From Pycnococcus provasolii (lineage: Eukaryota; Chlorophyta; Pseudoscourfieldiophyceae; Pseudoscourfieldiales; Pycnococcaceae): 64,000 nt of DNA. The stretch covers positions 432,916-496,915 of the forward strand of contig OW568895.1 in assembly GCA_938743325.2 (NCBI GenBank), given 5' to 3'. The position numbers were made by a program, and so were the translations under genes. This document shows, piece after piece, positions 17,691 through 62,685 of this stretch (position 1 is the stretch's first letter; every line of letters begins with the position of its first letter). The notes beneath the pieces are model-generated. The model worked only from the letters and a program-made list of their open reading frames with translations. It ran no database searches and was not told the origin of the DNA.

Positions 17691-17769
<79 letters not shown>

Positions 17770-19308: not shown

Positions 19309-19847
19309 ATTTCTTGACTCTTGTAAGGTTAAGCTGAGAGTGGTGCGAAGTGATCCCGGGTAGGGAAATAATGCGAACACACGAATGACGAGCGCGGACG
19401 TTTGGGCGGCCGGCGGGGAGAAGGAGGTGGGTGACGTGATTTCGGGGTTCGTCATCACGTGATTGAATTGGTCAAAACTCGATCGAGGAAGCAACAAGGC
19501 GGTTGGTGGATGACGATTAATAGAGTGGGATCTTCACGGTGATAAATATCAGCCATCTTTCAGGTCTTCTTTTTCTCTGACATCTGAGATTGCTTCTTGA
19601 TGAGACCGTCATCCACCTGATGACCTCTCCATTGGGCCATTGGGGTCTCGCACCAGCCACCAGGCAGCCACCCTTCCTAGGTGAAAAGAATGCTTTGGCC
19701 CTTCGCACCTCCAGGTGGGGTGAACTCCATTGGGGAAGGAACTAAAGGCATGGGTCCGTTATTGGGTCGGCGAATCTCGTGAACCCTCGGGAACCGTCGT
19801 CAAAAGGCGAACACCTCTACGCGAAAGGGGAAGGAGGAAAGCAATTA
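19309..19847. repeat. Upstream part of the tandem repeat unit (copy 1)
   Basis: The sequence upstream of YHYH copy 1 is nearly identical to 31929-32470 upstream of copy 3 and similar to 27797-28778 upstream of copy 2 (which has extra sequence). It is noncoding and presumably contains the promoter. It ends at the TTA target site into which the 5.1-kb element inserted. Confidence 0.8.
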
Positions 19848-46072: not shown

Positions 46073-49000
46073 CTATGCAGTACCACTTCCGACAAGCCTC
46101 GCCATGATTGCTCCAATCTGCTGTTTTGCAGCCCTTTCATCCACAAGATGTGGAGGGTATTTGGGTGTCAGCACCTCCACCTCCGCGGAGGGTTGCCAAG
46201 TGAGCGAGTCGTTTGTCGCACCACCCACTTTCGTACACGAATTGAGGGCCCAGGCAAGAGCGGATCGCTTCACCGGCTTCGACACGTATAACGACATGCC
46301 ACTTTCCGCGCACTTGTCGCTGTCCCCGCGCATGGCGTTGGCCGTGCACGCGACAATGGGCAAAACGAATGGCGCACTGCCCTCCCAGTCACGAATCTCT
46401 CGCGTGGCGGACCACCCATCCTTGATCGGCATGTTGCAGTCCATGAACACGCAGAGGATTTGATTGTGGCTCTGCTTCACCTCGTCGACAGCCTCCTGGC
46501 CATTCTTGGCAATCATCACCCGCCACGACATGGAACGAAGCATGCCCGAAATCACCTTGCGCGACACGTCGTCGTCCTCAACTACAAGCGCCGTGGGAAT
46601 ACTGCGAGCCTCTCGCAGCTTGGTGATCTCATCCACCAGAGGCTCGATGTCCTCGACTCGAATCGCGTGACAGCTAGGAATGCGGTGCGTGAGGGGGCAC
46701 CGCCCACCTGTGCTGCCGCTAACCTTGTTAGCTTCAGAATCGCCAGGATACGCGACGAATTTGTCACTTGCGCCAACGCCAGCGACGACGATGCGCACCG
46801 GGCGAATCACGTCAGCGATGGCAAGAGCCTGAACTGCCACCTCATCCTCCTCCTCGTTTTGGCAATCCACAAGAACCATGTCGCAAAAAGCGGGAGACTG
46901 GCGAGAAGGCGAGCCTGTGCTGATCAAGTGCAGGCATGCTTTCACGCTTGGTACCGCCTGCACGCTATCCACGTGCGCCGCGTGAAGCACATCCTCCATC
47001 TTACGAGTAAAACTTTCGTCTTTCGTGATGAGAATTGCCTTGAGCTGCGACGCCTGGCTTGGCTCGGCGCCATCGTTGTTGGCACGCGACCTCGAGCCTT
47101 TTCCGGAATGCGGCCTAGTACGGTTTTCCGACTCGTCGTTGTCGTGACCTACCATCGGGTCCATGACGAGGTAAGACTCCTTGAGGCAGCTCTTCACCGC
47201 GGCGATGAGAATCTGTCGGTTGATTGGTTTCTTCACAAATCTGTCCATGCCAGCCGCTCGGCACACGTCGACGTCTTCCGCCGTTCCTCCGGTAATGCCA
47301 ATCAGGGGAAGGCGGGAGACGCCGCCGGAACCTTCCGCCTGCTGCTCCACCTTTCGTATGATCCGCGAAGCCTCGGCTCCATCCATGATCGGCATATGTA
47401 AGTCGAGAAGCACGCACAAATATTCGGTGTTCAGGCACTTCGCATCGCCCTTCGAGATCAGCAGCTTGCTGATCGCCTCCTCTCCGTTGAAGGCTGTGTC
47501 GCAGGCGAATCCAGCCTTCTTGAGCATTCGCACCAGCACCAAACTGCTCGTCTTATCATCCTCCACGACGAGGAAGCGCTGCTTCGGATGCAGAGCCATT
47601 TCCACCTTGGCGGTGCTTTCGTTCGTTTCGTTAGCACTTTGCTCCATCGCCAAGTCTGCAAGAGCTGCCATGGAGTCTTGCATCTCTCCGAGAACCGGCG
47701 GCTCGTACTGCTCGCCACGAGATATGGCGGCGATCGTGTCACGCAGTTGCCACTGCCTGGTTGGCTTCGCGAGCACAGTCCACTTGACCGCACCCAACGA
47801 GGGTGAAGAAAAAACCTTCGTGGCTAAGGATCGCAGCCTGATGGGTGTCAAGATCACCCAACGCATTTCAGGGTAATCGGCAATGCAGCGCTCGTACGCC
47901 TGCTGGGCACTCTGTATCTCGTCAGCCTCCATGATGGACGAAATGACGGCAATCTTTGATTTCCTGTTGGCATCACTGATGCATTGCCGCAGCGCCTGCT
48001 GCAATCCTGCCGTGGATGGGATGGTTGCGCAGCGCGGTGATGTGGAGCACCAGTTCAAGCACCGCTTGGAAGTCTCGGCGATCCACTCGCGCATGCGCTC
48101 GTTGTGTGCGATGGTGATGACAAAAACCTCCTCCGTCAACGCAATGCAACCGGGCGGCGTGACCTTGGCGGTGAGTGGCAATCTCGACGGGCCGTTGCTC
48201 TTGCTAGAGCGACGGCCCAGCATAGCGGTCAAACTGAACGTAGAGCCCTTGCCCGGTTCGCTCTCAAGGGCAATCTGTCCTCCCATCAGCTCGCAGAGCT
48301 GTTTGGTAATCGCGAGGCCAAGCCCCGTTCCACCGTACTTGCGGGTGATTCCGGTGTCCACCTGTGTGAATCGCGCAAAGAGTTTTCTCTGCTGCTCACT
48401 TGGGATGCCAATTCCCGTGTCGCGCACGCTGATGAGCACGGTGAAAGGGTCGTCGTCCTCGTCCGTCGCGCGTCTTCCCGGGTTTTCGTTGGCAAGTTTC
48501 GTCAGCGCTAGCTCGATCTCACCTTTCGTCGTGAACTTCAGCGCATTTGACAGCATGTTCAGAAGCATTTGCTTCAGGCGAAGGCTGTCACCAATGACAT
48601 TGTCGGGCAGGCCCGGTCCGAGCGTGAAGATCACCTCGACACCCTTGATTGCGGCAAGGTGAGCAATCGAGTCCACCGCGTCGCCTGCGGTGGAGTACAG
48701 GCTAAACTCCCTCGATTCGAGCTCGAACTTCCCGGCTTCGACGCGCGTGAGGTCGAGAATGTCGCTAATGAGGGTAAGCAGCCCATTCGCGCTCGTTCGA
48801 ATCTGTCGACTTAGCTCGAGTTGATCGTCTTCCCCGAGCGTGTCGGAAAGCAGCTCATTCATTCCAATGATGCCGTTCAAAGGAGTTCTCATTTCATGAC
48901 TCATGTTTGCAAGGAACTGGGACTTGGCATCGTTCGCAGCCTGCGCCTTGGAGAGGGCAACCTCGGCGTCCATCATACGCTTGAAGTGCGTGACATCCTG

Positions 49001-52000
49001 ACCGACGCCAACGACGCCAATCACATTGCCCCTGACGTCGCGCCGAGGGTTTGCATTCAGCAGAATATGAATCGGATTCGACCAGTCTTCGTCCATCTTC
49101 GCCTGCTTCGTGTAGAATGCAATCTCGAATGACGCGGTGCTCTGTCCCTTGAGCGCCATGTCCATAATCTCCTGAACGGAGCGGCGATCGTGCGACATCA
49201 CAAACTTTTCCACAAAAACTTCGCCCTTCGCATCGAGCGCGGAATACCCTAGCAGCTCCTCAACCTTATTATTCCACTCGGTAATTCGACCCTCAAGATC
49301 GATGCCAATGATTGGCGCGTTGGCAGTTTCGATGAGCTGGCGTAGTTCTGATGCGATCGCTTCGAGCTCGACTTCCGCCTTTTTGCGTTCGGTGATATCC
49401 TGACCGACGCCAATCACGCCGTAGATCTTGCCCTCGACATCGCGTCGTGATGTGGCGTTCAGCAGCACTTCCACGCGCTCGCCACCCTTGGTGTACAGAG
49501 GGAACTCGAAGTTCTGCGCCTCCTTGCCTTTCAGGGCGTCGTCGAGCACACGCTGCACGCTTTCGCGGTAGTCGGGCGAAATGAAGTTCTGCACGAGGTG
49601 TCGGCCCATCGTTTCGTCTTTCGTATATCCTACAATCGCCTCGGCTTTGTCGTTCCACTCGTTGACGTTGCCGTGCACGTCGATTCCGAAGATGGGCGCG
49701 TTGGCGGTTTCGACGAACTGGCGAAGTTCTTTCGCGATAGATTCTTGTTTATCAGCAGCCTGCTTCGACTGCGTGATATCCTGACCGACGCCAATCACGC
49801 CGATGATGTTGCCCTCGACGTCACGTCGCGATGTCGCGTTCAGCAGCACTTCCACACGCTCGCCGCTCTTCGTGAAGAGAGGAAACTCGAAGTTCGCTGA
49901 CTCGATGCCGCGCAGCGCGTTGTCCAGCACGGCGCGCACCGCATCCTTGTACTCGTCCGTGATGAAGTGCTCGACGAGCCCGCGACCGAGCACGTCCTCC
50001 TTCGAGTACCCGGTGATCTGCATGGACTTGACGTTCCACTCGTTGACGTTGCCGTGCACGTCGATGCCGAAGATGGGCGCGTTGGCGGTTTCAATAAACT
50101 GGCGCAGTTCTGTGGCGACGTTTTCCAGCTCGACTTCCGCCTTTTTGCGTTCGGTGATATCCTGACCGACGCCAATCACGCCGTAGATCTTGCCCTCGAC
50201 ATCGCGTCGTGATGTGGCGTTCAGCAAGACTTCCACGCGCTCGCCACCCTTGGTGTACAGAGGGAACTCGAAGTTCTGCGCTTCGCGACCCTTCAGGGCG
50301 TCGTCGAGCACACGCTGCACGCTTTCGCGGTAGTCGGGCGAAATGAAGTTCTGCACGAGGTGTCGGCCCATCGTTTCGTCTTTCGTGTATCCTACAATCG
50401 CCTCGGCTTTGTCGTTCCACTCGTTGACGTTGCCGTGCACGTCGATGCCGAAGATGGGCGCGTTGGCGGTTTCGACGAACTGACGCAGTTCTTTCGCGAT
50501 AGATTCTTGTCTATCAGCAGCCTGCTTCGACTGCGTGATATCCTGACCGACGCCAATCACGCCGATGATCTTGCCCTCGACGTCACGTCGCGATGTCGCG
50601 TTCAGCAGCACTTCCACACGCTCGCCGCTCTTCGTGAAGAGAGGAAACTCGAAGTTCGCTGACTCCATTCCCAGCAAAGCTTTGTCGAGCACGGCGCGCA
50701 CCGCATCCTTGTACTCGTCCGTGATGAAGTGCTCGACAAGCCCGCGACCAAGCACGTCCTCCTTCGAGTACCCGGTGATCTGCATGGACTTGACGTTCCA
50801 CTCGTTGACGTTGCCGTGCACGTCGATGCCGAAGATGGGTGCGTTGGCGGTTTCAATAAACTGGCGCAGTTCTGTGGCGACGTTTTCCAGCTCGACTTCC
50901 GCCTTTTTGCGTTCGGTGATATCCTGACCGACGCCAATCACGCCGTAGATCTTACCCTCGACATCGCGTCGTGATGTGGCGTTCAGCAAGACTTCCACAC
51001 GCTCGCCACCCTTGGTGTACAGAGGGAACTCGAAGTTCTGCGCTTCGCGACCCTTCAGGGCGTCGTCGAGCACACGCTGCACGCTTTCGCGGTAGTCGGG
51101 CGAAATGAAGTTCTGCACGAGGTGTCGACCCATCGTTTCGTCTTTCGTGTACCCGACAATCGCCTCGGCTTTGTCGTTCCACTCGTTGACGTTGCCGTGC
51201 ACGTCGATGCCGAAGATGGGCGCGTTGGCTGTTTCGACGAATTGGCGTAATTCTGTCGCGATGGACTCCTGCTTGTCCGCCGCCTGCTTCGACTGCGTGA
51301 TATCCTGACCGACGCCAATCACGCCGATGATCTTGCCCTCGACGTCGCGTCGCGATGTCGCGTTCAGCAGCACTTCCACACGCTCGCCTGATTTTGTGAA
51401 GAGAGGAAACTCGAAGTTCGCTGACTCGATGCCGCGCAGCGCGTTGTCCAGCACGGCGCGCACCGCATCCTTGTACTCGTCCGTGATGAAGTGCTCGACG
51501 AGCCCGCGACCGAGCACGTCCTCCTTCGAGTACCCGGTGATCTGCATGGACTTGACGTTCCACTCGTTGACGTTGCCGTGCACGTCGATGCCGAAGATGG
51601 GCGCGTTGGCTGTTTCAATAAACTGGCGCAGTTCTGTGGCGACGTTTTCCAGCTCGACTTCCGCCTTTTTGCGTTCGGTGATATCCTGACCGACGCCAAT
51701 CACGCCGTAGATCTTACCCTCGACATCGCGTCGTGATGTGGCGTTCAGCAAGACTTCCACACGCTCGCCACCCTTGGTGTACAGAGGGAACTCGAAGTTC
51801 TGCGCTTCGCGACCCTTCAGGGCGTCGTCGAGCACACGCTGCACGCTTTCGCGGTAGTCGGGCGAAATGAAGTTCTGCACGAGGTGTCGGCCCATCGTTT
51901 CGTCTTTCGTGTATCCTACAATCGCCTCGGCTTTGTCGTTCCACTCGTTGACGTTGCCGTGCACGTCGATGCCAATGATGGGCGCGTTGGCGGTTTCAAT

Positions 52001-54283
52001 GAACTGACGCAGCTCTGTCGCGATGGATTCTTGCTCGACTTCCGCCTTTTTGCGTTCGGTGATATCCTGACCGACGCCAATCACGCCGTAAATTTTTCCT
52101 TTCATATCGCGTCGTGATGTGGCGTTCAGCAAGACTTCCACGCGCTCGCCTGATTTTGTGAAGAGAGGGAACTCGAAGTTCTGCGCCTCCTTGCCTTTCA
52201 GGGCGTCGTCGAGCACACGCTGCACGCTTTCGCGGTAGTCGGGCGAAATGAAGTTCTGCACGAGGTGTCGACCCATCGTTTCGTCTTTCGTGTACCCGAC
52301 AATCGCCTCGGCTTTGTCGTTCCACTCGTTGACGTTGCCGTGCACGTCGATGCCGAAGATGGGCGCGTTGGCGGTTTCGACGAATTGGCGTAATTCTGTC
52401 GCGATGGACTCCTGCTTGTCCGCCGCCTGCTTCGACTGCGTGATATCCTGACCGACGCCAATCACGCCGATGATCTTGCCCTCGACGTCGCGTCGCGATG
52501 TCGCGTTCAGCAGCACTTCCACACGCTCGCCGCTCTTCGTGAAGAGAGGAAACTCGAAGTTCGCTGACTCCATTCCCAGCAAAGCTTTGTCCAGCACGGC
52601 GCGCACCGCATCCTTGTACTCGTCCGTGATGAAGTGCTCGACGAGCCCGCGACCGAGCACGTCCTCCTTCGAGTACCCGGTGATCTGCATGGACTTGACG
52701 TTCCACTCGTTGACGTTGCCGTGCACGTCGATGCCGAAGATGGGTGCGTTGGCGGTTTCAATAAACTGGCGCAGTTCTGTGGCGACGTTTTCCAGCTCGA
52801 CTTCCGCCTTTTTGCGTTCGGTGATATCCTGACCGACGCCAATCACGCCGTAGATCTTGCCCTCGACATCGCGTCGTGATGTGGCGTTCAGCAAGACTTC
52901 CACGCGCTCGCCACCCTTGGTGTACAGAGGGAACTCGAAGTTCTGCGCTTCGCGACCCTTCAGGGCGTCGTCGAGCACACGCTGCACGCTTTCGCGGTAG
53001 TCGGGCGAAATGAAGTTCTGCACGAGGTGTCGACCCATCGTTTCGTCTTTCGTGTATCCTACAATCGCCTCGGCTTTGTCGTTCCACTCGTTGACGTTGC
53101 CATACACGTCGATGCCGAAGATGGGCGCGTTGGCGGTTTCGACGAATTGGCGTAATTCTGTCGCGATGGACTCCTGCTTGTCCGCCGCCTGCTTCGACTG
53201 CGTGATATCCTGACCGACGCCAATCACGCCGATGATCTTGCCCTCGACGTCACGTCGCGATGTCGCGTTCAGCAGCACTTCCACACGCTCGCCTGATTTT
53301 GTGAAGAGAGGAAACTCGAAGTTCGCTGACTCCATTCCCAGCAAAGCTTTGTCGAGCACGGCGCGCACCGCATCCTTGTACTCGTCCGTGATGAAGTGCT
53401 CGACAAGCCCGCGACCGAGCACGTCCTCCTTCGAGTACCCGGTGATCTGCATGGACTTGACGTTCCACTCGTTGACGTTGCCGTGCACGTCGATGCCGAA
53501 GATGGGTGCGTTGGCGGTTTCAATAAACTGGCGCAGTTCTGTGGCGACGTTTTCCAGCTCGACTTCCGCCTTTTTGCGTTCGGTGATATCCTGACCGACG
53601 CCAATCACGCCGTAGATCTTACCCTCGACATCGCGTCGTGATGTGGCGTTCAGCAAGACTTCCACGCGCTCGCCACCCTTGGTGTACAGAGGGAACTCGA
53701 AGTTCTGCGCCTCCTTGCCTTTCAGGGCGTCGTCGAGCACACGCTGCACGCTTTCGCGGTAGTCGGGCGAAATGAAGTTCTGCACGAGGTGTCGGCCCAT
53801 CGTTTCGTCTTTCGTGTATCCTACAATCGCCTCGGCTTTGTCGTTCCACTCGTTGACGTTGCCGTACACGTCGATGCCGAAGATGGGCGCGTTGGCTGTT
53901 TCGACGAACTGGCGAAGTTCTTTGGCGTCGCTCTCATGCTCCTTTTGTGTATCTTTAATAACCACGAGTCTGTAGTCTGTTTCTCTTGTTTCCCCTGTGT
54001 GTTCGAGCTTCGTGACGCTCACACGAAACTCGCCTTCGGTAAACACGCTCTCAAGCCCTTTCAAGATTGCGTCGAGTAGTCGTTGCATGAGCTTGTTGCC
54101 TGTGCCGTCGTTAATGACGTCCTGTATTCTGGCATTTCTCACAAGCTCGTGGTTGAAGAGGTCTCTTCGCTCGGTGGCGGCTTCACTCCACAGCTTTATG
54201 GAGCCTTCCGCGTCGACGACCACCGCCGCGACGCCGACTAGAGAGAGCGCCCGCACGACGGAGTCGAGCAGAGGCGACGGCAT
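46073..54283 (-). CDS. Giant hybrid histidine kinase with 14 PAS-type units and receiver domains
   Basis: ATG at 54283 gives 2,736 residues. An N-terminal degenerate PAS-like domain (1-120) is followed by 12 PAS units of 127 residues (~121-1645) of two kinds: A ('GNVNEWNDKAEAIVGYTKDE') seven times and B ('GNVNEWNVKSMQITGYSKED') five times, then a divergent PAS ('RITEWNNKVEELLGYSALDA'). The kinase has the HisKA box SHEMRTPLNGIIG (phospho-acceptor His1796) and HATPase boxes 'LSNALKFTTKGEIEL', 'VRDTGIGIP' and 'GGTGLGLAI'. A receiver with Asp2294 ('VLLDLHMPIMDG'), a degenerate receiver, and a receiver with Asp2615 ('VFMDCNMPIKDG') follow. No membrane helix or signal peptide is visible, so it is a soluble sensor; PAS ligands are unknown. 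LOV Cys motifs are absent. Confidence 0.93.
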   Translation of the reverse strand: MPSPLLDSVVRALSLVGVAAVVVDAEGSIKLWSEAATERRDLFNHELVRNARIQDVINDGTGNKLMQRLLDAILKGLESVFTEGEFRVSVTKLEHTGETRETDYRLVVIKDTQKEHESDAKELRQFVETANAPIFGIDVYGNVNEWNDKAEAIVGYTKDETMGRHLVQNFISPDYRESVQRVLDDALKGKEAQNFEFPLYTKGGERVEVLLNATSRRDVEGKIYGVIGVGQDITERKKAEVELENVATELRQFIETANAPIFGIDVHGNVNEWNVKSMQITGYSKEDVLGRGLVEHFITDEYKDAVRAVLDKALLGMESANFEFPLFTKSGERVEVLLNATSRRDVEGKIIGVIGVGQDITQSKQAADKQESIATELRQFVETANAPIFGIDVYGNVNEWNDKAEAIVGYTKDETMGRHLVQNFISPDYRESVQRVLDDALKGREAQNFEFPLYTKGGERVEVLLNATSRRDVEGKIYGVIGVGQDITERKKAEVELENVATELRQFIETANAPIFGIDVHGNVNEWNVKSMQITGYSKEDVLGRGLVEHFITDEYKDAVRAVLDKALLGMESANFEFPLFTKSGERVEVLLNATSRRDVEGKIIGVIGVGQDITQSKQAADKQESIATELRQFVETANAPIFGIDVHGNVNEWNDKAEAIVGYTKDETMGRHLVQNFISPDYRESVQRVLDDALKGKEAQNFEFPLFTKSGERVEVLLNATSRRDMKGKIYGVIGVGQDITERKKAEVEQESIATELRQFIETANAPIIGIDVHGNVNEWNDKAEAIVGYTKDETMGRHLVQNFISPDYRESVQRVLDDALKGREAQNFEFPLYTKGGERVEVLLNATSRRDVEGKIYGVIGVGQDITERKKAEVELENVATELRQFIETANAPIFGIDVHGNVNEWNVKSMQITGYSKEDVLGRGLVEHFITDEYKDAVRAVLDNALRGIESANFEFPLFTKSGERVEVLLNATSRRDVEGKIIGVIGVGQDITQSKQAADKQESIATELRQFVETANAPIFGIDVHGNVNEWNDKAEAIVGYTKDETMGRHLVQNFISPDYRESVQRVLDDALKGREAQNFEFPLYTKGGERVEVLLNATSRRDVEGKIYGVIGVGQDITERKKAEVELENVATELRQFIETANAPIFGIDVHGNVNEWNVKSMQITGYSKEDVLGRGLVEHFITDEYKDAVRAVLDKALLGMESANFEFPLFTKSGERVEVLLNATSRRDVEGKIIGVIGVGQDITQSKQAADRQESIAKELRQFVETANAPIFGIDVHGNVNEWNDKAEAIVGYTKDETMGRHLVQNFISPDYRESVQRVLDDALKGREAQNFEFPLYTKGGERVEVLLNATSRRDVEGKIYGVIGVGQDITERKKAEVELENVATELRQFIETANAPIFGIDVHGNVNEWNVKSMQITGYSKEDVLGRGLVEHFITDEYKDAVRAVLDNALRGIESANFEFPLFTKSGERVEVLLNATSRRDVEGNIIGVIGVGQDITQSKQAADKQESIAKELRQFVETANAPIFGIDVHGNVNEWNDKAEAIVGYTKDETMGRHLVQNFISPDYRESVQRVLDDALKGKEAQNFEFPLYTKGGERVEVLLNATSRRDVEGKIYGVIGVGQDITERKKAEVELEAIASELRQLIETANAPIIGIDLEGRITEWNNKVEELLGYSALDAKGEVFVEKFVMSHDRRSVQEIMDMALKGQSTASFEIAFYTKQAKMDEDWSNPIHILLNANPRRDVRGNVIGVVGVGQDVTHFKRMMDAEVALSKAQAANDAKSQFLANMSHEMRTPLNGIIGMNELLSDTLGEDDQLELSRQIRTSANGLLTLISDILDLTRVEAGKFELESREFSLYSTAGDAVDSIAHLAAIKGVEVIFTLGPGLPDNVIGDSLRLKQMLLNMLSNALKFTTKGEIELALTKLANENPGRRATDEDDDPFTVLISVRDTGIGIPSEQQRKLFARFTQVDTGITRKYGGTGLGLAITKQLCELMGGQIALESEPGKGSTFSLTAMLGRRSSKSNGPSRLPLTAKVTPPGCIALTEEVFVITIAHNERMREWIAETSKRCLNWCSTSPRCATIPSTAGLQQALRQCISDANRKSKIAVISSIMEADEIQSAQQAYERCIADYPEMRWVILTPIRLRSLATKVFSSPSLGAVKWTVLAKPTRQWQLRDTIAAISRGEQYEPPVLGEMQDSMAALADLAMEQSANETNESTAKVEMALHPKQRFLVVEDDKTSSLVLVRMLKKAGFACDTAFNGEEAISKLLISKGDAKCLNTEYLCVLLDLHMPIMDGAEASRIIRKVEQQAEGSGGVSRLPLIGITGGTAEDVDVCRAAGMDRFVKKPINRQILIAAVKSCLKESYLVMDPMVGHDNDESENRTRPHSGKGSRSRANNDGAEPSQASQLKAILITKDESFTRKMEDVLHAAHVDSVQAVPSVKACLHLISTGSPSRQSPAFCDMVLVDCQNEEEDEVAVQALAIADVIRPVRIVVAGVGASDKFVAYPGDSEANKVSGSTGGRCPLTHRIPSCHAIRVEDIEPLVDEITKLREARSIPTALVVEDDDVSRKVISGMLRSMSWRVMIAKNGQEAVDEVKQSHNQILCVFMDCNMPIKDGWSATREIRDWEGSAPFVLPIVACTANAMRGDSDKCAESGMSLYVSKPVKRSALAWALNSCTKVGGATNDSLTWQPSAEVEVLTPKYPPHLVDERAAKQQIGAIMARLVGSGTA
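49350..53920. repeat. 381-bp coding repeat array (12 units, mostly 762-bp A-B dimers)
   Basis: The 12 internal PAS units are direct DNA repeats of 381 bp. Order from the start of the gene is A B A B A A B A B A B A, so the 762-bp A-B dimer is the higher-order unit with one A-A junction. B units recur at 762-bp spacing except for one 1,143-bp gap (762+381) at the A-A junction. Units of one kind differ by only a few bases, indicating recent amplification or gene conversion. Confidence 0.95.
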
Positions 54284-55544
54284 GTTATTGTTTGCGAATG
54301 GGAAGGGAAGGGAATGGGGGGGCGGCTGAAGCTGAGGGTTTACGTGTATCACGCGTGTTTTAATACAAACGCGGCTGGCAGGCTGGCGGCTGGGGGGGGA
54401 GGAGGAAGGTTGGGAAAAAGAGAAAAAGCGGGTGAAGCAGGCAGGTGAAGCAGGCCTGGCTTTCGCAACAAGGAAGGGGAAGGGAAGGGGCCGGCCTTCC
54501 CCAAGTTAAAAGTTGGACTGTCAAAAAGTTGGACTGTCCGATCTGCACAGCATGAAAATAGGTCCAGGTGGAGGTGGTCTTCGCTCGCACGGATTTTTTC
54601 TTTTTTTGTCCACCCTGTCAGGTCTATCGTGGACTTCTTCAGACATGGGTAACCACCGTTGAACCAAACTTCTTCTCAAGGGTCGCTGGGGATCCCGGTC
54701 GCAAATCCTCGGGTCCGGCTATCGTAGTTTCAGAAGAAAGTCAATGGCGGAACTTTTGTCCTCTAGACGATCATCTGCCTATCCCTTGAGAGAGATCCGG
54801 GCCTTCCGGGGGGATCCCGGAATCGCGGGCGCGGTGGCTCGCCCCCTAATCGCAAGAGAAGCCCACTGGCAGTTATTATGGGTCCGTCATACTTTTGCAC
54901 GGGAGCTCCCGGGAGCTCCCGGGGGTTCTCCGGGAGCTCCCGGGAGTTTCTCAGGGCAGCAACGCCCCCCGAAAGGAGGTGGTATGCGGGCGTCAGCCCG
55001 TATTCACGGGAACGGTCTTCACCGAAAAAAAAATTTTTCGGCGACCCTTCCCGGTCTCCTACGCCTATCCCCGTCAGTCGCCCGTCCGTTCTCTTCTCAA
55101 GAGTGATGGAGGTTCGGACGGGTCGGGCGGGAAGGAGGAGGAGCAAGGGAAAGGCCGCCCCCCGGGCGGCCTTTCCATGGGGCGTGAAGGGAACCTCCCT
55201 TCTCGGCGTGCCCCCTGTAGAAAACCCCAAATTTCCGTGTGAACACTGGAAATGTGGGCCCTCCCGGAGGGTCTTGGGAGCTCCCGGGAGCTCCCAAGAC
55301 CCCTGGGAGCCACCCCCCTCTCCTGGGAGCTCCCGATTTCTGGTCTCCCGGGAGACCCCTGGGAGCTCCCCCTGGGGAGCTCCCAGGAGCTCCCAGGGGG
55401 GTCTCCGGGGGGGTCTCCTGGGAGCTCCGGGGCGGAGAGGGGGTCTCCGGGGGGGTCTCCTAGGAGCTCCCAGGGGGGTTCTCGGGAGCTCCTAGGAGCT
55501 CCCGGTCGTCGTGTTTATACCCACACACGGCTATTTCGTCGTGA
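54284..55544. other. Intergenic region with palindromic low-complexity DNA
   Basis: No gene is supported. From about 54897 to 55503 the sequence is dominated by repeats of the palindrome GGGAGCTCCC and variants (GGGGGTCTCC, CCCGGGAG), giving many overlapping hairpins and Gly/Ser/Pro-coding frames. A CCGAAAAAA...TTTTTCGG hairpin lies near 55022-55040. The left part includes the promoter of the histidine kinase. Confidence 0.6.
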
Positions 55545-56301
55545 TTACATCGTGATAAAATGGTTCACAACAAAACTTTTCGCATCCTTCCATAGCAAGC
55601 TATCAGTGTGTTCCACAGGAGAGCGTTCAAGCACGCTCTCCGCAGGAATTACTTCGAACTGGTTATCGGCGACGGGATTTTGCTTCTTCTTTCCCTTCTT
55701 CTGCGCCTTCGCTTTCGGCGTCCAAATGAGTTCAGTCATTTCTTCAGGGAATAGTCCGGAACGCTCCGCCACATCCATCCACCTCACATATGCCAAGTCA
55801 TACTTTTGTGAGCCAATGCTCGCTTGGAATAAAGCAATCACCTGAGCGTACCATGGATCGGCGGCATCGTCGTCACCAGCCGGCTTCACACTTACGCAGT
55901 CGTGGACCTCTTTTCCCGAACTATTCTGGGAACCGCCACGGATCCAAGTGGAGTTCTCCTACCTTGACGAGAAGGCATGCGAACGCAGCGAGGTGCGCGT
56001 CGCTCCAATCCACGCCACACCATTCCTCGGCTGTTGTCGCACACAAGCGCGAGAGAATGACGTCAGTAGGAAGAGGCGCAGCACCAGACGCAGCAGACGC
56101 AGCACCACCAGACGCAGCAGACGCAGCACCACCAGACGCAGCAGACGCAGCACCACCAGACGCAGCACCACCAGCACCAGCACGAGCACGAGCATAGAAC
56201 GGCTGCTTCTCGAAAGTGCCTGTAGACGACAGGCGATACACCTGCCACGGCTTGGAGGTGTTCGCCATCTCTTGGCCGAACTTGCCTCCGCCGAACACCA
56301 T
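55545..56301 (-). CDS. BAH-domain-like protein with a 37-nt intron
   Basis: Exon 1 runs from ATG 56301 to 55963 and exon 2 from 55925 to 55545; removing the GT...AG intron 55926-55962 (GTAGGAG...TTCCCAG) restores one frame across 'CLLVK-NSSGKEVHDCVSVKP', giving 239 residues. Without splicing the first frame stops within the intron. The joined part 'VHDCVSVKP...PWYAQVIALFQ' and 'YVRWMDVAERSGLFPEEMTE' follows the BAH pattern (gD-x-V-x-v, p-x-y-i-a-x-I-x-x-i-f-e, v-x-W-f-x-r-x-E), a chromatin interaction fold. Residues ~40-75 are GGAASAAS repeats coded by an imperfect ACGCAGC... repeat. The C terminus has KAKAQKKGKKK. The ATG lies at the very edge of a block duplicated at 61864. Confidence 0.72.
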
Positions 56302-56538
56302 ACTTTTGCATGCATGCACACACAGAAGAAGAAGAAGAAGTGAAGCAGTGTGTTGACGGTCGACGATAAAACTAAAATCAAGATGGTGAACGTGACGGAG
56401 GGGATCAACTTGCTTGGTTGAGAACGAGTCGGAGAGTCGGAGAGGGAGAATGGGAGGCACGAATTGGCAAAAACTCCGAAGAGGCGTATTGATTCAAAAT
56501 TTGTGTACCTCGACACCGACGTTCATATTGAACGCAAT

Positions 56539-56710
56539 AGGGCAAGGTCCGTGGTTCGACTCCGGTAAGAATTTCTTTCTATCACTCTCTTCGTGCACCA
56601 CCTCTGCCCTCTTCTTACCAAAAAATCACAAACCCAGCGTAGGAGTATTTTGACTACCCATCAGAAAAAATGGCTCCTGTAGCTCAGTTGGTCAGAGCGT
56701 GCCCTTCGTA
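56539..56710 (+). tRNA. Circularly permuted tRNA-Thr(CGU) with an insert in the T arm, copy 1
   Basis: The 3' half precedes the 5' half. 56539-56564 carries A38, anticodon-stem GGGCA (39-43), variable loop AGGTC, CGTGG, T loop TTCGACT and CCG. After a 73-nt insert (56565-56637, GTAAGA...CCCAG), 56638-56647 supplies CG (64-65), acceptor TAGGAGT (66-72) and A73. A 25-nt linker follows, then 56673-56710: acceptor GCTCCTG, TA, D arm GCTC-AGTTGGTCA-GAGC, G26, TGCCC, loop TTCGTA with anticodon CGT. All stems close: anticodon 5/5, D 4/4, T 5/5 (one G-U), acceptor 7/7 (two terminal G-U). G15-C48, G18G19, T54T55C56 and A58 are present, and C2-G71 fits Thr identity. A T9 run follows the 5' half. Insert boundaries are inferred and ambiguous by one base. 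Confidence 0.85.
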
Positions 56711-56711
56711 A

Positions 56712-56720
56712 TTTTTTTTT
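56712..56720 (+). terminator. RNA polymerase III-type T9 terminator
   Basis: Nine consecutive T residues begin two bases after the 5' half of the permuted tRNA. Placement after the 5' half, not after the 3' half, is what a permuted precursor needs. Confidence 0.75.
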
Positions 56721-57107
56721 GCAAAAATGGTGGACCTGGCTTTTACCGGAAAAAGAAGATAAGAAATATGGGATACGCCAGGTGTAGCCGAAATGTGCGC
56801 CCGTCGCCCTATTCCATTCCCATTCCCCAGGGTGACGCTTGGACGCGTTTTAGCCTGACTCGGCCAACCCCGAACGCCCCCTCCGGAGGCGATCCCTCCT
56901 CACTCCCGAGGAAGCGACGGACGGGCTGGCGGGGAGTGTTGCACAGGCTCTCCCGGCCTCCGCTCCTCTCGCCCCTGACGCAGAAATTTCTTTTCTCTCT
57001 CTGCTTAAGAAAGAGAGGGTCACGGACCTAACTTAATCATCACAATAGACTACAAATACAAGTTGACTACTAACTTACAAACAAATTTTGTTCTCTCCAT
57101 TCATAAA

Positions 57108-59504
57108 TCACAAGCCCAGTAGCGAAAATGCGCGCTGGCTCATCGTAATGGCGCCCTCGGTCTTCTTTGACGATTGTCTTGATGTGACGAGCTGTTGTCG
57201 GCGAGGAGACTTGGTTGCAACCGCGGTTGGTGCGGGAGGAGTCACGACGGCACTGGTCGTTTGATGGGAAATCTCCGCCGGAGGATATCTGGGCTCGACA
57301 GGCATGACTGGCACCGCAGAAATTGCCGCCGGCAAGACGTATGTCTCTAGCCTCTCCTCCTCCTCCTCCTCCTCCTCCTCCTCCTCCTCTTGCTCCTGCT
57401 TCCACTCCCCCTGCTCCTGTTGCTCCAGCTTCCACTGCTCCTCCTGCTCCTCTTGCTCCTGCTTCCACTCATCCTCTTCCTGCGCAGCAGCAGCATAATC
57501 ATCACCACCACCAACACCACCAGCAGCAGCTTCCACTTCCCACCAAGCAGCTACGTCATCCTCGCCCTCGTCCTCTTCATCCGCCAACACTTTCTCCTCC
57601 TCCTCCTCCACCGCCTCCTTTCTTCTCCTCCGCAGTTCCTCATTCTCAGTCCTCAGCGACTCGTTCTCAATCGCTATGGAGATGAAGCGGCCGCGCTCCT
57701 CGCGTGCAGCCTCCTTCAACCTCTCAATTTCAGCTTCTGCCATGGCCAACCTTGTGCGTAGATCATCCGAATTCATTGAAGTCGAAAGCAGCGTTCTCAC
57801 CTCCTCTCTCTCCTGCTCCTGCTCCAGCTCCTCCTCCTCTCTCTCCTCCTCCTCCTCCTCCTGCTCCTCCTCCTCCTGCTCTTCTTCCTCAACTCCGAAA
57901 GCCATCATAGTGGCACGGCGCACAGCTTCTTCCGCATCCAACTGCTCGTTGTCGACCCTTGCCGCCTGCTCCGTGTTGTTGTTCTTTGCTATAATCGCCT
58001 CATCAGAAGATGCTCTGATAGACCGCGGCGTGAGATCCTCAACGCTCGCGCGCAGCCTCGCATTCTCAGCCCGCAGCACCGTGAGCTCGCGGTGCATGTC
58101 GCTCGTCGCCGTAGCCACAGCGTGTGCCACCGCGCTGGGCGACTCCCCGCCCCTGGGCAGCCAGCTCGCGGCGCTGCCTGCCGCGCCCTTGGGCCCTTGG
58201 AACCCGAGATTGTCGCCGCTCGCGACGCGCACGACGGGGCGATTGCGAATGTTCATCGCCCGCGTCGCATAGTACAGCGTGCTCAGAGTCTCGTCGGTGT
58301 GCCGTGAGCTGGGAGAAACGCACGCGAGAAGGAGAGCCAGGCTATTTCCACCAAGGGAGTCGCGGAGCAGCTTCGTGAGCGTGCTGTCCCGATAGGGAAC
58401 GTGCATTGCTGCCGCGTCGCCAGAGGCGGCGGACTGGCTGAGACTCGGAACCTGCTGCTCTGCTGCCGCTCCAAGCTTGCTGATAACCTTGCTCAGCGCG
58501 AACAGGCTTCGATTGATGGAGCCAGTCTCCTTCGTCATCACATTGCTCTCAGCTCCCGCGCTGAGCCTCTCAGATCCCGCTAGGTCAACGAACACCGCCT
58601 TGCCAAGCAGAGGAGGGCACGCGCCTCCGCCAGCCGCGTGCGGTACACGCACGTGCACGGTAAAGATGGAGTGACTTCGACTGCTATCCCGATTCCCGCG
58701 CGTTGCGCGCACGCGCCGGTTGCGCGCACCCCTGAGCAAAAGCTTACGTGCAACGGCAAGGCTAGGCAGCGCGCGCTCACGCAGGCCGGGCACGTGGAAA
58801 CCGTTGCGAGCGTCGTAGCGAACGGGCAACGATGACGACGTTGTCGGCGGAGTGGAGGAGACGTCGCCGCCGACGCCACCTGCGACGCCGCCACCGCGTG
58901 ACGTCTCGTCTACCGCCCAAAGGTCGAACACAAGCTCTGAGTACACCTCGAGGTACGTTGCGCTGACAGCCGCGCCGCTCACTTTTGCATACTCGAAGAT
59001 CTGCGCCAGGCTTCGAACGATGATGCCGTCGTCGTCAGCGGTGGCGTCTTCCTCCGCACTGCTGCTGCCCTCCGCACTGTCGCGCGCGGCAAGCTGTTCA
59101 ATCCGCCCTGACATGCTGAACGTCTTGCCTGAACCTGTTTGCCCGTACGCGATGATCGTCGCGCCGTATCCCTGGAAGACACGCTCGAGAAGGTTCGTCC
59201 ACCCTGACCTCTCAATAAGCTCGGTGTTTGCCACCTCCGGGCCGCACACCGAGGGGAACGCAAAGTCGCGGAAGGCTGCAGAAGTGCGCACGCGCAGTGC
59301 CCCGTCAACAGGCGAGCAGGCTGGCGGTTGTGCCGAGATGGTGAGAACATGACCTCCATTCTCCGCCAGACGATCCGAGGGTAAGATGGGGCGCACGCGA
59401 ACGCTCACGTGAACGCACGACGACGTCTCGGAACCGCCGCCGCGGCTGCGGTTACTCAACGGCGGCTGTTGAACATCGGGCTCGAGCGCAGTTCGGTCCT
59501 GCAT
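57108..59504 (-). CDS. Kinesin with N-terminal motor and acidic coiled-coil tail
   Basis: ATG at 59504 gives 798 residues. The motor starts 'VHVSVRVRPI' (~31) and contains the P-loop GQTGSGKT (121-128), switch I 'NRDSSRSH' (271-278), switch II 'DLAGSE' (307-312) and 'HVPYRDSTLTKLLRDSLGG', with 'ETLSTLYYATRAMNIRNRP' at the motor/neck boundary. Two low-complexity inserts in the motor (acidic near 140-160, Gly-rich near 202-225) are unusual. The tail (~480-740) is coiled coil with long Glu runs coded by CTC repeats, ending in a basic Ser/Thr-rich segment. Subfamily not assigned. The last three codons lie inside the duplicated block. Confidence 0.92.
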   Translation of the reverse strand: MQDRTALEPDVQQPPLSNRSRGGGSETSSCVHVSVRVRPILPSDRLAENGGHVLTISAQPPACSPVDGALRVRTSAAFRDFAFPSVCGPEVANTELIERSGWTNLLERVFQGYGATIIAYGQTGSGKTFSMSGRIEQLAARDSAEGSSSAEEDATADDDGIIVRSLAQIFEYAKVSGAAVSATYLEVYSELVFDLWAVDETSRGGGVAGGVGGDVSSTPPTTSSSLPVRYDARNGFHVPGLRERALPSLAVARKLLLRGARNRRVRATRGNRDSSRSHSIFTVHVRVPHAAGGGACPPLLGKAVFVDLAGSERLSAGAESNVMTKETGSINRSLFALSKVISKLGAAAEQQVPSLSQSAASGDAAAMHVPYRDSTLTKLLRDSLGGNSLALLLACVSPSSRHTDETLSTLYYATRAMNIRNRPVVRVASGDNLGFQGPKGAAGSAASWLPRGGESPSAVAHAVATATSDMHRELTVLRAENARLRASVEDLTPRSIRASSDEAIIAKNNNTEQAARVDNEQLDAEEAVRRATMMAFGVEEEEQEEEEQEEEEEEREEEELEQEQEREEVRTLLSTSMNSDDLRTRLAMAEAEIERLKEAAREERGRFISIAIENESLRTENEELRRRRKEAVEEEEEKVLADEEDEGEDDVAAWWEVEAAAGGVGGGDDYAAAAQEEDEWKQEQEEQEEQWKLEQQEQGEWKQEQEEEEEEEEEEEERLETYVLPAAISAVPVMPVEPRYPPAEISHQTTSAVVTPPAPTAVATKSPRRQQLVTSRQSSKKTEGAITMSQRAFSLLGL

Positions 59505-60969: not shown

Positions 60970-61875
60970 TCAAAAGACATCCTTGGCATGCCGCACCTTG
61001 GCAAACGTCTCAACCGGGTCGGTGGTGTTGAAGTGCGCCTGGAGAGAAGGTTCGTCCGCACGCATGAACGGATTTGTTGACTTTTCGAGACGGATGGTTG
61101 TGGGAACCGTCCACTCGTCCTTCTCGCGCTGCTTCTGCACGAGCTGGTAGCGTTCTGCGAGGTTCTCGTTCTTGACATCCGCGGTGACGGCAAACTTCGC
61201 GTTTGCCAGCGTGTACTCGTGCGCGCAGAATACCAGCGTGTCATCGGGAAGAGCCTTGAGCTTACGAATGCTGCTCCACATCTGCGCCGGCGTTCCCTCA
61301 AACAGTCGTCCACAACCCATCGCGAACAGCGTATCTCCGCAGAACAGCGCGCCGGAGTCCGCGAAGTGATACACGATGTGCCCAGACGTATGTCCCGGCG
61401 TGTCGTACACGGTGGCGAGACTGTTGAAAACGACGTCGTTTTCTCCCGCAGGTGTGGTGATGCAAGGAATGCGCTCGTTTGCCGGACCCACAACTTCGCA
61501 GTCAGGGTAGAGAGAGAGGAGATCGGCGTTTCCACCCGCGTGGTCGGCGTGGTGGTGCGTATTCAAGATGTGGGTGAGTTGGAAGCCGTAGTGGGCGAGA
61601 ATGGAATGGATGAGCGAAGCGTCAGGCGTGTCAATGGCTGCCGTGTGCTCACCCTTGTGGACGAGGTAGCCGTAGTTGTCTGACAGAGCGCGAAACTGGA
61701 TGACGGTGAGGTTGTTGGGAAGGTTGTACTCTTTTGTGGTGATGTCGAACATCGTCGACGAAGCAGCAACTTTTGACTTTTGCCTGTGACTAGTGAGGCG
61801 GCGGAAAAATGAAGAACAAGAGGTGGTGGTGGTGGTGGAACGAAAGAACGTTTTTGTTGTGCTATACTTTTGCAT
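60970..61875 (-). CDS. Glyoxalase II (hydroxyacylglutathione hydrolase)
   Basis: The metallo-beta-lactamase-fold enzyme hydrolyses S-lactoylglutathione to lactate in methylglyoxal detoxification. Visible are the metal motif THHHADHAGG (106-112 for the core), 'VYDTPGHTSGHIVYHF' (third metal His), 'GALFCGDTLFAMGCGRLFEG' (bridging Asp), 'VFCAHEYTLANAKFAV' (last His) and the C-terminal 'VPTTIRLEKSTNPFMR', all characteristic. ATG 61752 starts a cytosolic-length 260-residue form (MFDITTKEYNL); ATG 61875 adds a Ser/Thr/Arg-rich 41-residue N terminus (MQKYSTTKTFFRST...) resembling a mitochondrial presequence. That upstream ATG lies inside the duplicated block 61864-62685, so the longer form may be a recent gain. 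Confidence 0.92.
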   Translation of the reverse strand: MQKYSTTKTFFRSTTTTTSCSSFFRRLTSHRQKSKVAASSTMFDITTKEYNLPNNLTVIQFRALSDNYGYLVHKGEHTAAIDTPDASLIHSILAHYGFQLTHILNTHHHADHAGGNADLLSLYPDCEVVGPANERIPCITTPAGENDVVFNSLATVYDTPGHTSGHIVYHFADSGALFCGDTLFAMGCGRLFEGTPAQMWSSIRKLKALPDDTLVFCAHEYTLANAKFAVTADVKNENLAERYQLVQKQREKDEWTVPTTIRLEKSTNPFMRADEPSLQAHFNTTDPVETFAKVRHAKDVF

Positions 61876-62110
61876 GCATGCACACACAGAAGAAGAAGAA
61901 GAAGTGAAGCAGTGTCCGTTGTTGTTGACGGTCGACGATAAAACTAAAATCAAGATGGTGAACGTGACGGAGGGGATCAACTTGCTTGGTTGAGAACGAG
62001 TCGGAGAGTCGGAGAGGGAGAATGGGAGGCACGAATTGGCAAAAACTCCGAAGAGGCGTATTGATTCAAAATTTGTGTACCTCGACACCGACGTTCATAT
62101 TGAACGCAAT

Positions 62111-62282
62111 AGGGCAAGGTCCGTGGTTCGACTCCGGTAAGAATTTCTTTCTATCACTCTCTTCGTGCACCACCTCTGCCCTCTTCTTACCAAAAAATCA
62201 CAAACCCAGCGTAGGAGTATTTTGACTACCCATCAGAAAAAATGGCTCCTGTAGCTCAGTTGGTCAGAGCGTGCCCTTCGTA
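62111..62282 (+). tRNA. Circularly permuted tRNA-Thr(CGU), copy 2
   Basis: Identical in sequence and layout to copy 1, shifted by 5,572 bases: 3' half 62111-62136, insert 62137-62209, remaining T-stem/acceptor/A73 62210-62219, linker 62220-62244, 5' half 62245-62282 with anticodon CGT. As part of the derived block it shows the permuted form has been copied as DNA along with its flanks. Confidence 0.85.
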
Positions 62283-62283
62283 A

Positions 62284-62292
62284 TTTTTTTTT
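62284..62292 (+). terminator. T9 terminator of permuted tRNA copy 2
   Basis: Nine T residues follow the 5' half at the same spacing as in copy 1. Confidence 0.75.
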
Positions 62293-62685
62293 GCAAAAAT
62301 GGTGGACCTGGCTTTTACCGGAAAAAGAAGATAAGAAATATGGGATACGCCAGGTGTAGCCGAAATGTGCGCCCGTCGCCCTATTCCATTCCCATTCCCC
62401 AGGGTGACGCTTGGACGCGTTTTAGCCTGACTCGGCCAACCCCGAACGCCCCCTCCGGAGGCGATCCCTCCTCACTCCCGAGGAAGCGACGGACGGGCTG
62501 GCGGGGAGTGTTGCACAGGCTCTCCCGGCCTCCGCTCCTCTCGCCCCTGACGCAGAAATTTCTTTTCTCTCTCTGCTTAAGAAAGAGAGGGTCACGGACC
62601 TAACTTAATCATCACAATAGACTACAAATACAAGTTGACTACTAACTTACAAACAAATTTTGTTCATTCATAAATCACAAGCCCA

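What the first reader, a model, noticed from the sequence alone, without database searches (positions are those of the whole stretch)
56539..56720. Circularly permuted tRNA-Thr(CGU) with an extra insert splitting its T arm
Seen directly: a 3' tRNA half lies upstream of a 5' half, the joined halves give a perfect anticodon stem around CGU, and a T9 terminator follows the 5' half. The T stem and acceptor stem complete only if 73 nt inside the T arm (56565-56637) are removed; then all four stems and the tertiary bases G15-C48, G18G19 and T54-A58 are right. Known: permuted tRNA genes occur in Cyanidioschyzon, in prasinophytes and in a nucleomorph. A permuted gene with a second disruption in the T arm would be a very complex case, and the insert ends look like GT...AG rather than an obvious endonuclease motif.
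Basis: partly seen in the sequence, partly recalled or inferred. Interest (0 to 1): 0.93.

Follow-up and report, generated by a model that had tools for sequence, protein, structure and literature searches.

The report
Spliceosome-type introns in scrambled tRNA genes
In a tiny marine green alga a transfer-RNA gene is written back to front and is also cut by an insert that looks like a messenger-RNA intron, and other tRNA genes of this alga carry the same kind of insert, which would make its genetic decoding depend on two different splicing machines.

Summary
Window 56539-56720 holds a permuted (37/38) tRNA-Thr(CGU) gene whose T stem is split at 63/64 by 73 nt. The genome fits Pycnococcus provasolii ucPycProv1.2. 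I parsed 21 different nuclear tRNA genes, a sample and not a census: 16 are permuted, 12 carry insertions outside 37/38. These 23 distinct ectopic introns are all 69-81 nt and GT...AG, with a CTNAY branch-point-like motif 17-24 nt before the intron end (shuffles: mean 4.6, maximum 12 of 23). None of the 20 tested has the four central pairs of a strict bulge-helix-bulge. One of two Ile copies has an extra 74-nt intron of this kind. One intron sequence sits at different positions in three tRNA genes. A U6-like gene has a GT-AG intron too. Best reading: mRNA-type introns have invaded Pol III tRNA genes; the spliceosome removes them, the tRNA endonuclease makes the circular junction. RNA evidence is lacking. 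Permuted tRNA genes with an extra intron are known; I found none in print with spliceosome-type introns.

The parts
56539..56564 (+). tRNA-Thr(CGU) 3' half, first exon (A38 to 63 in the T stem)
   Evidence: parsed; ARAGORN on the joined tRNA
56565..56637 (+). 73-nt ectopic intron, GTAAG...CCCAG, CTTAC with its A 20 nt before the intron end
   Evidence: tied best-scoring excision; 0 of 4 BHB central pairs
56638..56647 (+). 3' half, second exon (rest of T stem, acceptor 3' strand, A73)
56648..56672 (+). 25-nt intervening linker between the tRNA 3' and 5' ends
56673..56710 (+). tRNA-Thr 5' half (positions 1-37, anticodon CGT)
56712..56720 (+). T9 run, Pol III-type terminator, followed by GC
56525..56538 (+). 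leader just upstream of the 3' half; can pair with the anticodon loop (3 of 4 BHB central pairs, all three anticodon bases) at the 37/38 junction
62111..62136 (+). second copy: 3' half, first exon
   Evidence: 100% over 182 nt
62137..62209 (+). second copy: 73-nt GT-AG intron
62210..62219 (+). second copy: 3' half, second exon
62245..62282 (+). second copy: 5' half
62284..62292 (+). second copy: T9 terminator
56300..57118 (+). duplicated block that carries the gene (partner 61864-62685)

Best explanation
This is a working, circularly permuted nuclear tRNA-Thr(CGU) gene of P. provasolii with a spliceosomal (U2-type) intron in its T stem. Inferred path: Pol III transcribes leader, 3' half with intron, linker and 5' half, and stops at T9. 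The spliceosome removes the GT-AG intron (5' site GTAAG, branch site CTTAC, 3' site CAG). The tRNA splicing endonuclease and ligase join A37 to A38, giving a circle. RNase P and tRNase Z cut out the linker and CCA is added. The intron belongs to a class of mRNA-type introns that has entered many tRNA genes, and U6, in this genome. Shown: gene anatomy, restoration of the cloverleaf, GT-AG and branch-site-like signatures, no strict BHB at the ectopic introns tested, an intron present in one of two paralogues, one intron sequence in three genes. Inferred: transcription, splicing, the lariat, the circular intermediate, and use of the tRNA.
For: (1) 23 of 23 distinct ectopic introns in 12 tRNA genes are GT...AG, 69-81 nt, with CTNAY whose A lies 17-24 nt before the intron end; for the tested window of 14-26 nt, shuffled introns give a mean of 4.6 and a maximum of 12 of 23 in 5000 trials. 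(2) When excisions are scored only by how well they restore the cloverleaf, GT-AG is among the best in 18 of 20; for the 19 tightly constrained introns it is 17 against 0.42 expected. (3) Two Ile(AAT) copies, 99.65% alike over 572 bp up to that point, differ by a 74-nt GTGAG...CTAAC...TAG insertion between positions 31 and 32. (4) One intron family sits at 62/63 in Glu(CTC), 32/33 in Gln(CTG) and 27/28 in Asp(GTC), 85-88% identical to the Glu query. (5) None of 20 ectopic introns has 4 BHB central pairs or 4 or more outer pairs (mean central 1.1, highest 3; partner-shuffle null 1.39), while three canonical 37/38 introns have 3-4 central pairs. (6) A U6-like gene has a GTACG...CTACAG intron in ACAGAGAA|GATTAGC. 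(7) mRNA introns share the unusual 5' sites: GTACG in 3 and GTTCG in 1 of 4 complete ones; the 23 tRNA introns have GTAAG 11, GTACG 8, GTTCG 1. (8) ARAGORN, with CCA added, recognises 17 of 20 rearranged or spliced entries, Ile counted twice (14 of 16; 2 of 3; 1 of 1); of the 12 genes with ectopic introns it recognises 10. (9) A Prp8 C-terminal domain and two catalytic tRNA-endonuclease domains are encoded.
Against: There is no RNA evidence of any kind. Some exons are tiny: 5 nt in Gln(TTG), 8 nt in Ile copy b; neighbouring introns would have to be spliced one after the other (inference). Two introns fail the excision test: Ser variable arm 32.5 against 33, Gly D stem 32.5 against 34; a first version with a shorter D-loop limit gave 17 of 20. 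The BHB test used one fixed geometry, so the relaxed forms listed for C. merolae and O. lucimarinus are not excluded; one ectopic intron (Ile b) has 3 of 4 central pairs, and one canonical intron (Gly) has only 1 of 5 outer pairs. Right of the Ile insertion only 7 nt (CTAATAC) agree before about 15 nt that differ; 38 nt with the terminator then agree again. Three products are not recognised by ARAGORN (Gln(CTG), Met(CAT) of C26, His), and Glu(TTC) gets an uncertain anticodon. The few mRNA introns seen are longer (85-280 nt) and only 2 of 4 have CTNAY in the 14-26 nt window; in U6 it lies 31 nt out. The U6 match is weak (32.4 bits, Rfam cut-off 44). Searches were run because I had parsed with GT-AG in mind, but the neighbouring exons of multi-intron genes came from the same parse, and the three Asp introns were not put through that test.
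Confidence: 0.76

Rival explanations
1. The insert is an ectopic tRNA intron of the C. merolae kind, cut by the tRNA splicing endonuclease at a relaxed bulge-helix-bulge.
For: C. merolae has permuted genes with extra introns, and its BHB introns are processed in sequence (PMC3978253, section 7 read); [quoted passage not shown] Relaxed BHB forms are accepted there. The endonuclease catalytic domain is present here. The 37/38 permutation junctions show somewhat more pairing than the null (mean 2.3 of 4, null 1.77, 97.5% point 2.15).
Against: No strict BHB at any of 20 ectopic introns tested, the Thr insert scoring 0 of 4. BHB splicing does not ask for GT-AG, for 69-81 nt or for a CTNAY at a fixed distance. 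Sites in the acceptor, D and T stems do not fit the usual eukaryotic ruler (PMC3978253, section 8 read).
Confidence: 0.08
2. The loci are decaying pseudogenes or tRNA-derived repeats, and the working tRNA-Thr(CGU) is elsewhere.
For: Local duplicated copies exist, and some of the set have odd D loops or an acceptor mismatch (Gln(CTG)). The search for a colinear gene was not exhaustive.
Against: Both Thr copies are identical over 182 nt, and pairing is complete through three rearranged pieces. No colinear copy was found. 21 different nuclear tRNA genes were parsed, and only two of them, Trp and Tyr, are colinear without an ectopic intron; if the disrupted ones were all dead the alga would lack most tRNAs (inference).
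Confidence: 0.06
3. The tRNA genes are transcribed by Pol II inside longer transcripts, so that ordinary co-transcriptional mRNA splicing explains the introns.
For: Spliceosomal splicing is normally coupled to Pol II; the introns look like mRNA introns.
Against: A T8-T11 run follows the genes read, also those found without a terminator filter; one search did use such a run as a filter, so for the genes it brought in this is no independent evidence. The U6-like gene has the same kind of end and an intron. S. pombe U6 shows that a Pol III transcript can be spliced by the spliceosome (PMC8917221, passage read).
Confidence: 0.12

Closest known systems
Circularly permuted tRNA genes, type II (C. 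merolae; Ostreococcus, Micromonas; Bigelowiella nucleomorph)
   Same: 3' half upstream of 5' half, junction at 37/38, short linker (25 nt; reported range 1-74), T run after the 5' half, some BHB-like pairing at the junction (PMC3978253, sections 4, 7, 8 read; here).
   Different: The Thr gene also carries a 73-nt GT-AG intron without a strict BHB; 16 of the 21 tRNA genes parsed here are permuted.
Permuted tRNA genes with an added intron: C. merolae Gly(CCC), Arg(CCT), Leu(TAA); O. lucimarinus Ser(TGA)
   Same: A permuted gene that needs a second splicing event (PMC3978253 Table 1). The O. lucimarinus case is a 56-nt intron at 27/28 listed as 'no H'.
   Different: In the permuted C. merolae genes the introns are short (13-27 nt) and BHB-mediated.
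Highly disrupted tRNA set of C. merolae
   Same: 34 of 43 nuclear tRNA genes disrupted while only a few protein genes have spliceosomal introns (PMC3978253, passage); the same imbalance is seen here.
   Different: There the tRNA introns are BHB introns; here the ectopic ones look spliceosomal.
mRNA-type intron in U6 snRNA (S. pombe)
   Same: A spliceosomal intron in a Pol III gene, removed by the spliceosome (PMC8917221, passage). This genome has an intron in its U6-like gene as well.
   Different: tRNA genes rather than U6, many introns, several per gene.
Introner elements / mobile spliceosomal introns (recalled, no paper read)
   Same: The same intron sequence at non-homologous positions: Glu, Gln, Asp.
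   Different: Only one family at three sites was found, by one query, and all its six matches lie in copies of those three tRNA genes, two of the three Asp copies judged by their spacing only; the Thr query found no relative elsewhere.

Membership tests
Circularly permuted tRNA gene, type II | 3' half encoded upstream of the 5' half, together giving a full cloverleaf | tested here: met
Circularly permuted tRNA gene, type II | junction at 37/38 | tested here: met
   A37 and A38 adjoin the anticodon stem halves
Circularly permuted tRNA gene, type II | BHB/hBH-type pairing at the junction | tested here: inconclusive
   Thr has 3 of 4 central, 3 of 3 anticodon-leader and 5 of 5 outer pairs; the mean over 13 junctions is only a little above the null
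Circularly permuted tRNA gene, type II | circular RNA intermediate | not testable with these tools
   needs RNA
U2-type spliceosomal intron | GT...AG ends at the exon junction | tested here: met
U2-type spliceosomal intron | branch-site motif at a set distance from the 3' splice site | tested here: met
   23 of 23, null mean 4.6
U2-type spliceosomal intron | same splice signals as mRNA introns of the genome | tested here: inconclusive
   5' sites agree, but only 4 complete mRNA introns, longer, branch motif in the window in 2 of 4
U2-type spliceosomal intron | lariat and removal by the spliceosome | not testable with these tools
   needs RNA
BHB (tRNA-endonuclease) intron | bulge-helix-bulge at the intron-exon borders (one fixed geometry tested) | tested here: not met
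   0 of 20 ectopic introns; Thr insert 0 of 4; relaxed forms not excluded
Introner / mobile spliceosomal intron | near-identical introns at many unrelated sites | tested here: inconclusive
   one family at three sites; none found for the Thr intron

The most novel reading that the evidence does not exclude
Mobile spliceosomal introns are spreading through the Pol III genes of this alga. Most nuclear tRNAs would then be made only after spliceosomal removal of one to three introns from inside stems and, for permuted genes, circularisation by the tRNA endonuclease, so that translation itself depends on the spliceosome acting on Pol III transcripts.
Probability: 0.58. Interest if true: 0.96.

Novelty: new variant of a known kind. 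Interest (0 to 1): 0.92.

Why it matters
Textbook tRNA introns are removed by a protein endonuclease, and mRNA introns by the spliceosome. Here the two systems would have to work on the same tiny transcript, up to three times per gene, inside stems needed for folding. The intron present in one of two paralogues and the shared intron in three genes make intron gain in Pol III genes directly testable (reverse splicing or DNA insertion). Ordinary tRNA finders would miss such genes: ARAGORN sees none in this window. Older puzzles such as the 56-nt 'no H' intron of O. lucimarinus Ser(TGA) deserve another look.

Tried and rejected
BHB fold of the insert: tested in one geometry and not met. Group I/II or other catalytic RNA: no Rfam match over the window, and 73 nt is too short (general knowledge). 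Chance: excision test and shuffles. A colinear Thr(CGU) elsewhere: not found, with the limit that RF00005 scored only 63 of 587 candidates. The motif counts by themselves prove nothing: 14 matches against 17 in the reversed control, 79 against 65, 38 against 79; the genes rest on reading the fetched DNA. Gln(TTG), Lys(CTT) and Ser(GCT) first looked unreadable and resolved once several introns per gene were allowed. In one search one Lys(CTT) exon was placed too early, giving a false 54-nt intron; corrected to 77 nt. Excision test version 1 (D loop up to 13) gave 17 of 20, version 2 (up to 16) 18 of 20. The three Asp introns were found later and were put through neither the excision nor the BHB test. 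One candidate passing the filter (L090) was not resolved. The odds for the best explanation were lowered from 0.82 to 0.76, and for the novel case from 0.60 to 0.58, on rechecking, because the terminator runs were partly a search filter and because relaxed BHBs were not tested.

Literature: searches (40 of 45 papers listed; 30 of 89; 15 of 22) and 73 looked for permuted tRNAs, spliceosomal introns in tRNA genes, ectopic tRNA introns, U6 introns and P. provasolii tRNA introns in the open-access library. No title or abstract start in those listings reports spliceosomal introns in tRNA genes or permuted tRNAs of P. provasolii. Beyond the listings I read sections of PMC3978253, the abstract of PMC9602550 and passages of PMC11130579, PMC8209157, PMC12633428, PMC12301720, PMC13149111 and PMC8917221. 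Maruyama 2010, Soma 2007 and 2013 and Tani and Ohshima were not read; they are known to me through those papers.

Full report
WHAT IS THERE. The 3' half of a tRNA (A38 on) begins at 56539, runs to 56564, is broken by 73 nt (56565-56637) and finishes at 56647. A 25-nt linker follows, then the 5' half 56673-56710 (positions 1 to A37, anticodon CGT), then T9. Joined in tRNA order without the 73 nt, and with CCA added, this is called tRNA-Thr(cgt) by ARAGORN; as it stands in the window it is invisible to ARAGORN and Rfam. A second copy, identical over all 182 nt, sits at 62111-62292 of the same window, inside a duplicated block. No other copy and no colinear tRNA-Thr(CGU) was found (RF00005 scored only 63 of 587 candidates).

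WHOSE GENOME. The window is C35:432916-496915 of a 32.33-Mb assembly of 46 contigs. Pycnococcus provasolii ucPycProv1.2 is described as 32.2 Mb, 44 chromosomes, a 24.3-kb mitochondrial and an 80.2-kb plastid genome, QV 58.2 (PMC11130579, abstract and passages). Size, contig number and the places of the organellar tRNAs fit; the name is an inference.

THE CLASS. A colinear tRNA search found 27 matches, 24 on the two organelle contigs and three nuclear. ARAGORN reads the nuclear ones as Tyr and Trp (the second Trp copy aligns at 99.9%). I therefore searched short D-arm and T-loop motifs. The motif counts are not above their reversed controls as a whole (14 against 17; 79 against 65; 38 against 79), so the genes rest on reading the DNA. 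I fetched the surroundings of all 66 nuclear matches and of 19 of the 36 nuclear matches, screened them by script and read the ones that passed or looked likely. By my reading 20 of the 66 and 10 of the 19 lie in tRNA genes, second copies being judged by alignment; most of the others were dropped by the filters and not read one by one. With Ile, Tyr and Asp this gives 21 different nuclear tRNA genes, a sample and not a census. 16 are permuted: Thr(CGT), Ile(AAT), Asn(GTT), Ser(GCT), Ser(TGA), Leu(CAA), Glu(CTC), Glu(TTC), Gln(CTG), Gln(TTG), Lys(CTT), Lys(TTT), Gly(TCC), His(GTG), Asp(GTC) and a Met(CAT) on C26. Five are colinear: Leu(CAG), Met(CAT) on C23, Gly(GCC), Trp(CCA), Tyr(GTA). Twelve of the 21 carry introns outside 37/38: nine permuted and three colinear.

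THE INTRONS. There are 23 distinct ectopic introns, at positions from 8/9 to 67/68, in the acceptor, D, anticodon, variable and T regions; Lys(CTT), Gln(TTG) and Asp(GTC) have three each. All 23 begin GT and end AG, are 69-81 nt long, and hold CTNAY with its A 17-24 nt before the intron end. Shuffling the introns gives a CTNAY in the 14-26 nt window in 4.6 of 23 on average and never more than 12 in 5000 trials. They are A+T-rich (39% GC; window 57%). The three 37/38 introns measured (41, 17 and 32 nt) are not GT-AG and lack the motif in that window.

IS GT-AG READ INTO THE DATA? I parsed with GT-AG in mind, so I scored every excision within set limits only by cloverleaf pairing and conserved tRNA bases. 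GT-AG is among the best-scoring excisions in 18 of 20 (17 of 20 with a tighter D-loop limit). For the 19 with at most six tied solutions it is 17, against 0.42 expected from the GT-AG frequency among tested excisions. The misses are the Ser(GCT) variable arm and the Gly(GCC) D stem. The three Asp introns were not put through this test. A case that needs no scoring: two Ile(AAT) copies on C16, alike at 99.65% over 572 bp up to that point, differ by a 74-nt insertion, GTGAG...CTAAC...ATAG, between GGTC and CTAATAC. To the right only those 7 nt agree before about 15 nt that differ; 38 nt including the terminator then agree.

SPREAD. The Glu(CTC) T-stem intron, used as a query, has relatives in the genome at Gln(CTG) on C40 (85%) and at three places on C13 (88%). 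The one C13 place read is an Asp(GTC) gene with two further GT-AG introns. So one intron sequence occupies 62/63, 32/33 and 27/28 in three different tRNA genes. For the Thr intron no such relative was found.

SPLICEOSOME OR ENDONUCLEASE. Scored for one fixed BHB geometry, 0 of 20 ectopic introns have the four central pairs or four outer pairs; their mean of 1.1 central pairs (highest 3) is no better than partner shuffling (1.39). The three canonical introns have 3-4 central pairs (outer 4, 4 and 1). The 13 permutation junctions, both Ile copies counted, average 2.3 (null 1.77, 97.5% point 2.15), and the Thr junction has 3 of 4 plus full anticodon-leader pairing. Relaxed BHBs were not tested. 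The genome encodes two proteins with the tRNA-endonuclease catalytic domain, a Prp8 C-terminal domain and a U6-like gene, a weak Rfam match of 32.4 bits, whose ACAGAGAA|GATTAGC stretch is split by a 161-nt GTACG...CTACAG intron. Protein genes do have introns with the same unusual 5' sites (GTACG in three, GTTCG in one of four complete ones), but these are longer (85-280 nt) and only 2 of 4 have the branch motif in the window. They are also rare: 56 of the first 60 kinase-domain rows cover at least 250 of 263 positions in one open frame.

HOW IT LIKELY WORKS. Inferred steps: Pol III transcription to the T run; spliceosomal removal of the GT-AG intron; endonuclease and ligase join 37 to 38, closing a circle; RNase P and tRNase Z free the ends. 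The circular route has been defined biochemically for permuted pre-tRNAs (PMC3978253, abstract). That a Pol III transcript can be spliced by the spliceosome is known for S. pombe U6 (PMC8917221, passage). C. merolae Gly(CCC) loses its T-loop intron before the permuted ends are joined (PMC3978253, section 7); the same order is plausible here. The T runs speak for Pol III, but one search used them as a filter, so they count only for the genes found without it.

AGAINST. No RNA data. Exons of 5 and 8 nt between introns demand sequential splicing. Gln(CTG), the C26 Met and His are not recognised by ARAGORN, and Glu(TTC) only with an uncertain anticodon; in all 17 of 20 entries are recognised, Ile counted twice. 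The mRNA comparison rests on four introns.

NOVELTY. Permuted tRNA genes, also with an added intron and once in the T loop, are known (PMC3978253, Table 1); Auxenochlorella has permuted genes too (PMC12633428, passage). Spliceosome-type introns in nuclear tRNA genes were not found in the listings, three of which were capped. Hence 'new variant of a known kind', with high interest.

Noticed in passing
C35, C16, C7, C23, C3, C13, C20, C28, C11, C25, C26, C34 of G000 (window: 56300-57118 and 61864-62685): Many of the nuclear tRNA genes read, and U6, occur as two near-identical copies about 1.6-22 kb apart on the same chromosome, often inverted; the Asp(GTC) intron is in three places 5964 bp apart. 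This looks like local duplication kept alike by gene conversion.
   Followed up: partly
downstream ends of the tRNA genes and of U6, e.g. window 56712-56722: The T8-T11 run is in most cases followed by GC (Met on C23 and Lys(CTT) differ), more uniform than a plain T run would need.
   Followed up: no
L029, L102, L107, L073 upstream of the 3' half: A shared upstream element GGGGATACCG(G/C)TTC, perhaps a Pol III promoter that replaces the broken internal A and B boxes.
   Followed up: no
L073 Lys(TTT), L108 Met(CAT), L075 His(GTG), L112 Gln(CTG): D loops with about 3-8 extra nucleotides before GG; either long D loops or very small introns.
   Followed up: no
L108, near 1000 and 2958: Two permuted tRNA genes, Lys(CTT) and Met(CAT), lie about 2 kb apart, and the pair is repeated inverted about 8 kb away (L109).
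   Followed up: partly
C34:514197-514281(-) and 522277-522361(+): U6-like snRNA gene with an mRNA-type intron inside the ACAGAGA box region; the Rfam match is weak and only the first copy was read.
   Followed up: partly
window 46073-54352(-): A 2759-aa open frame with many near-identical PAS-like repeats ahead of a hybrid histidine kinase (domain names by eye).
   Followed up: no
window 16480-19497, 25526-27877, 29706-32117 (all -): Three paralogous Thr-rich, probably secreted proteins in a local array (by eye).
   Followed up: no
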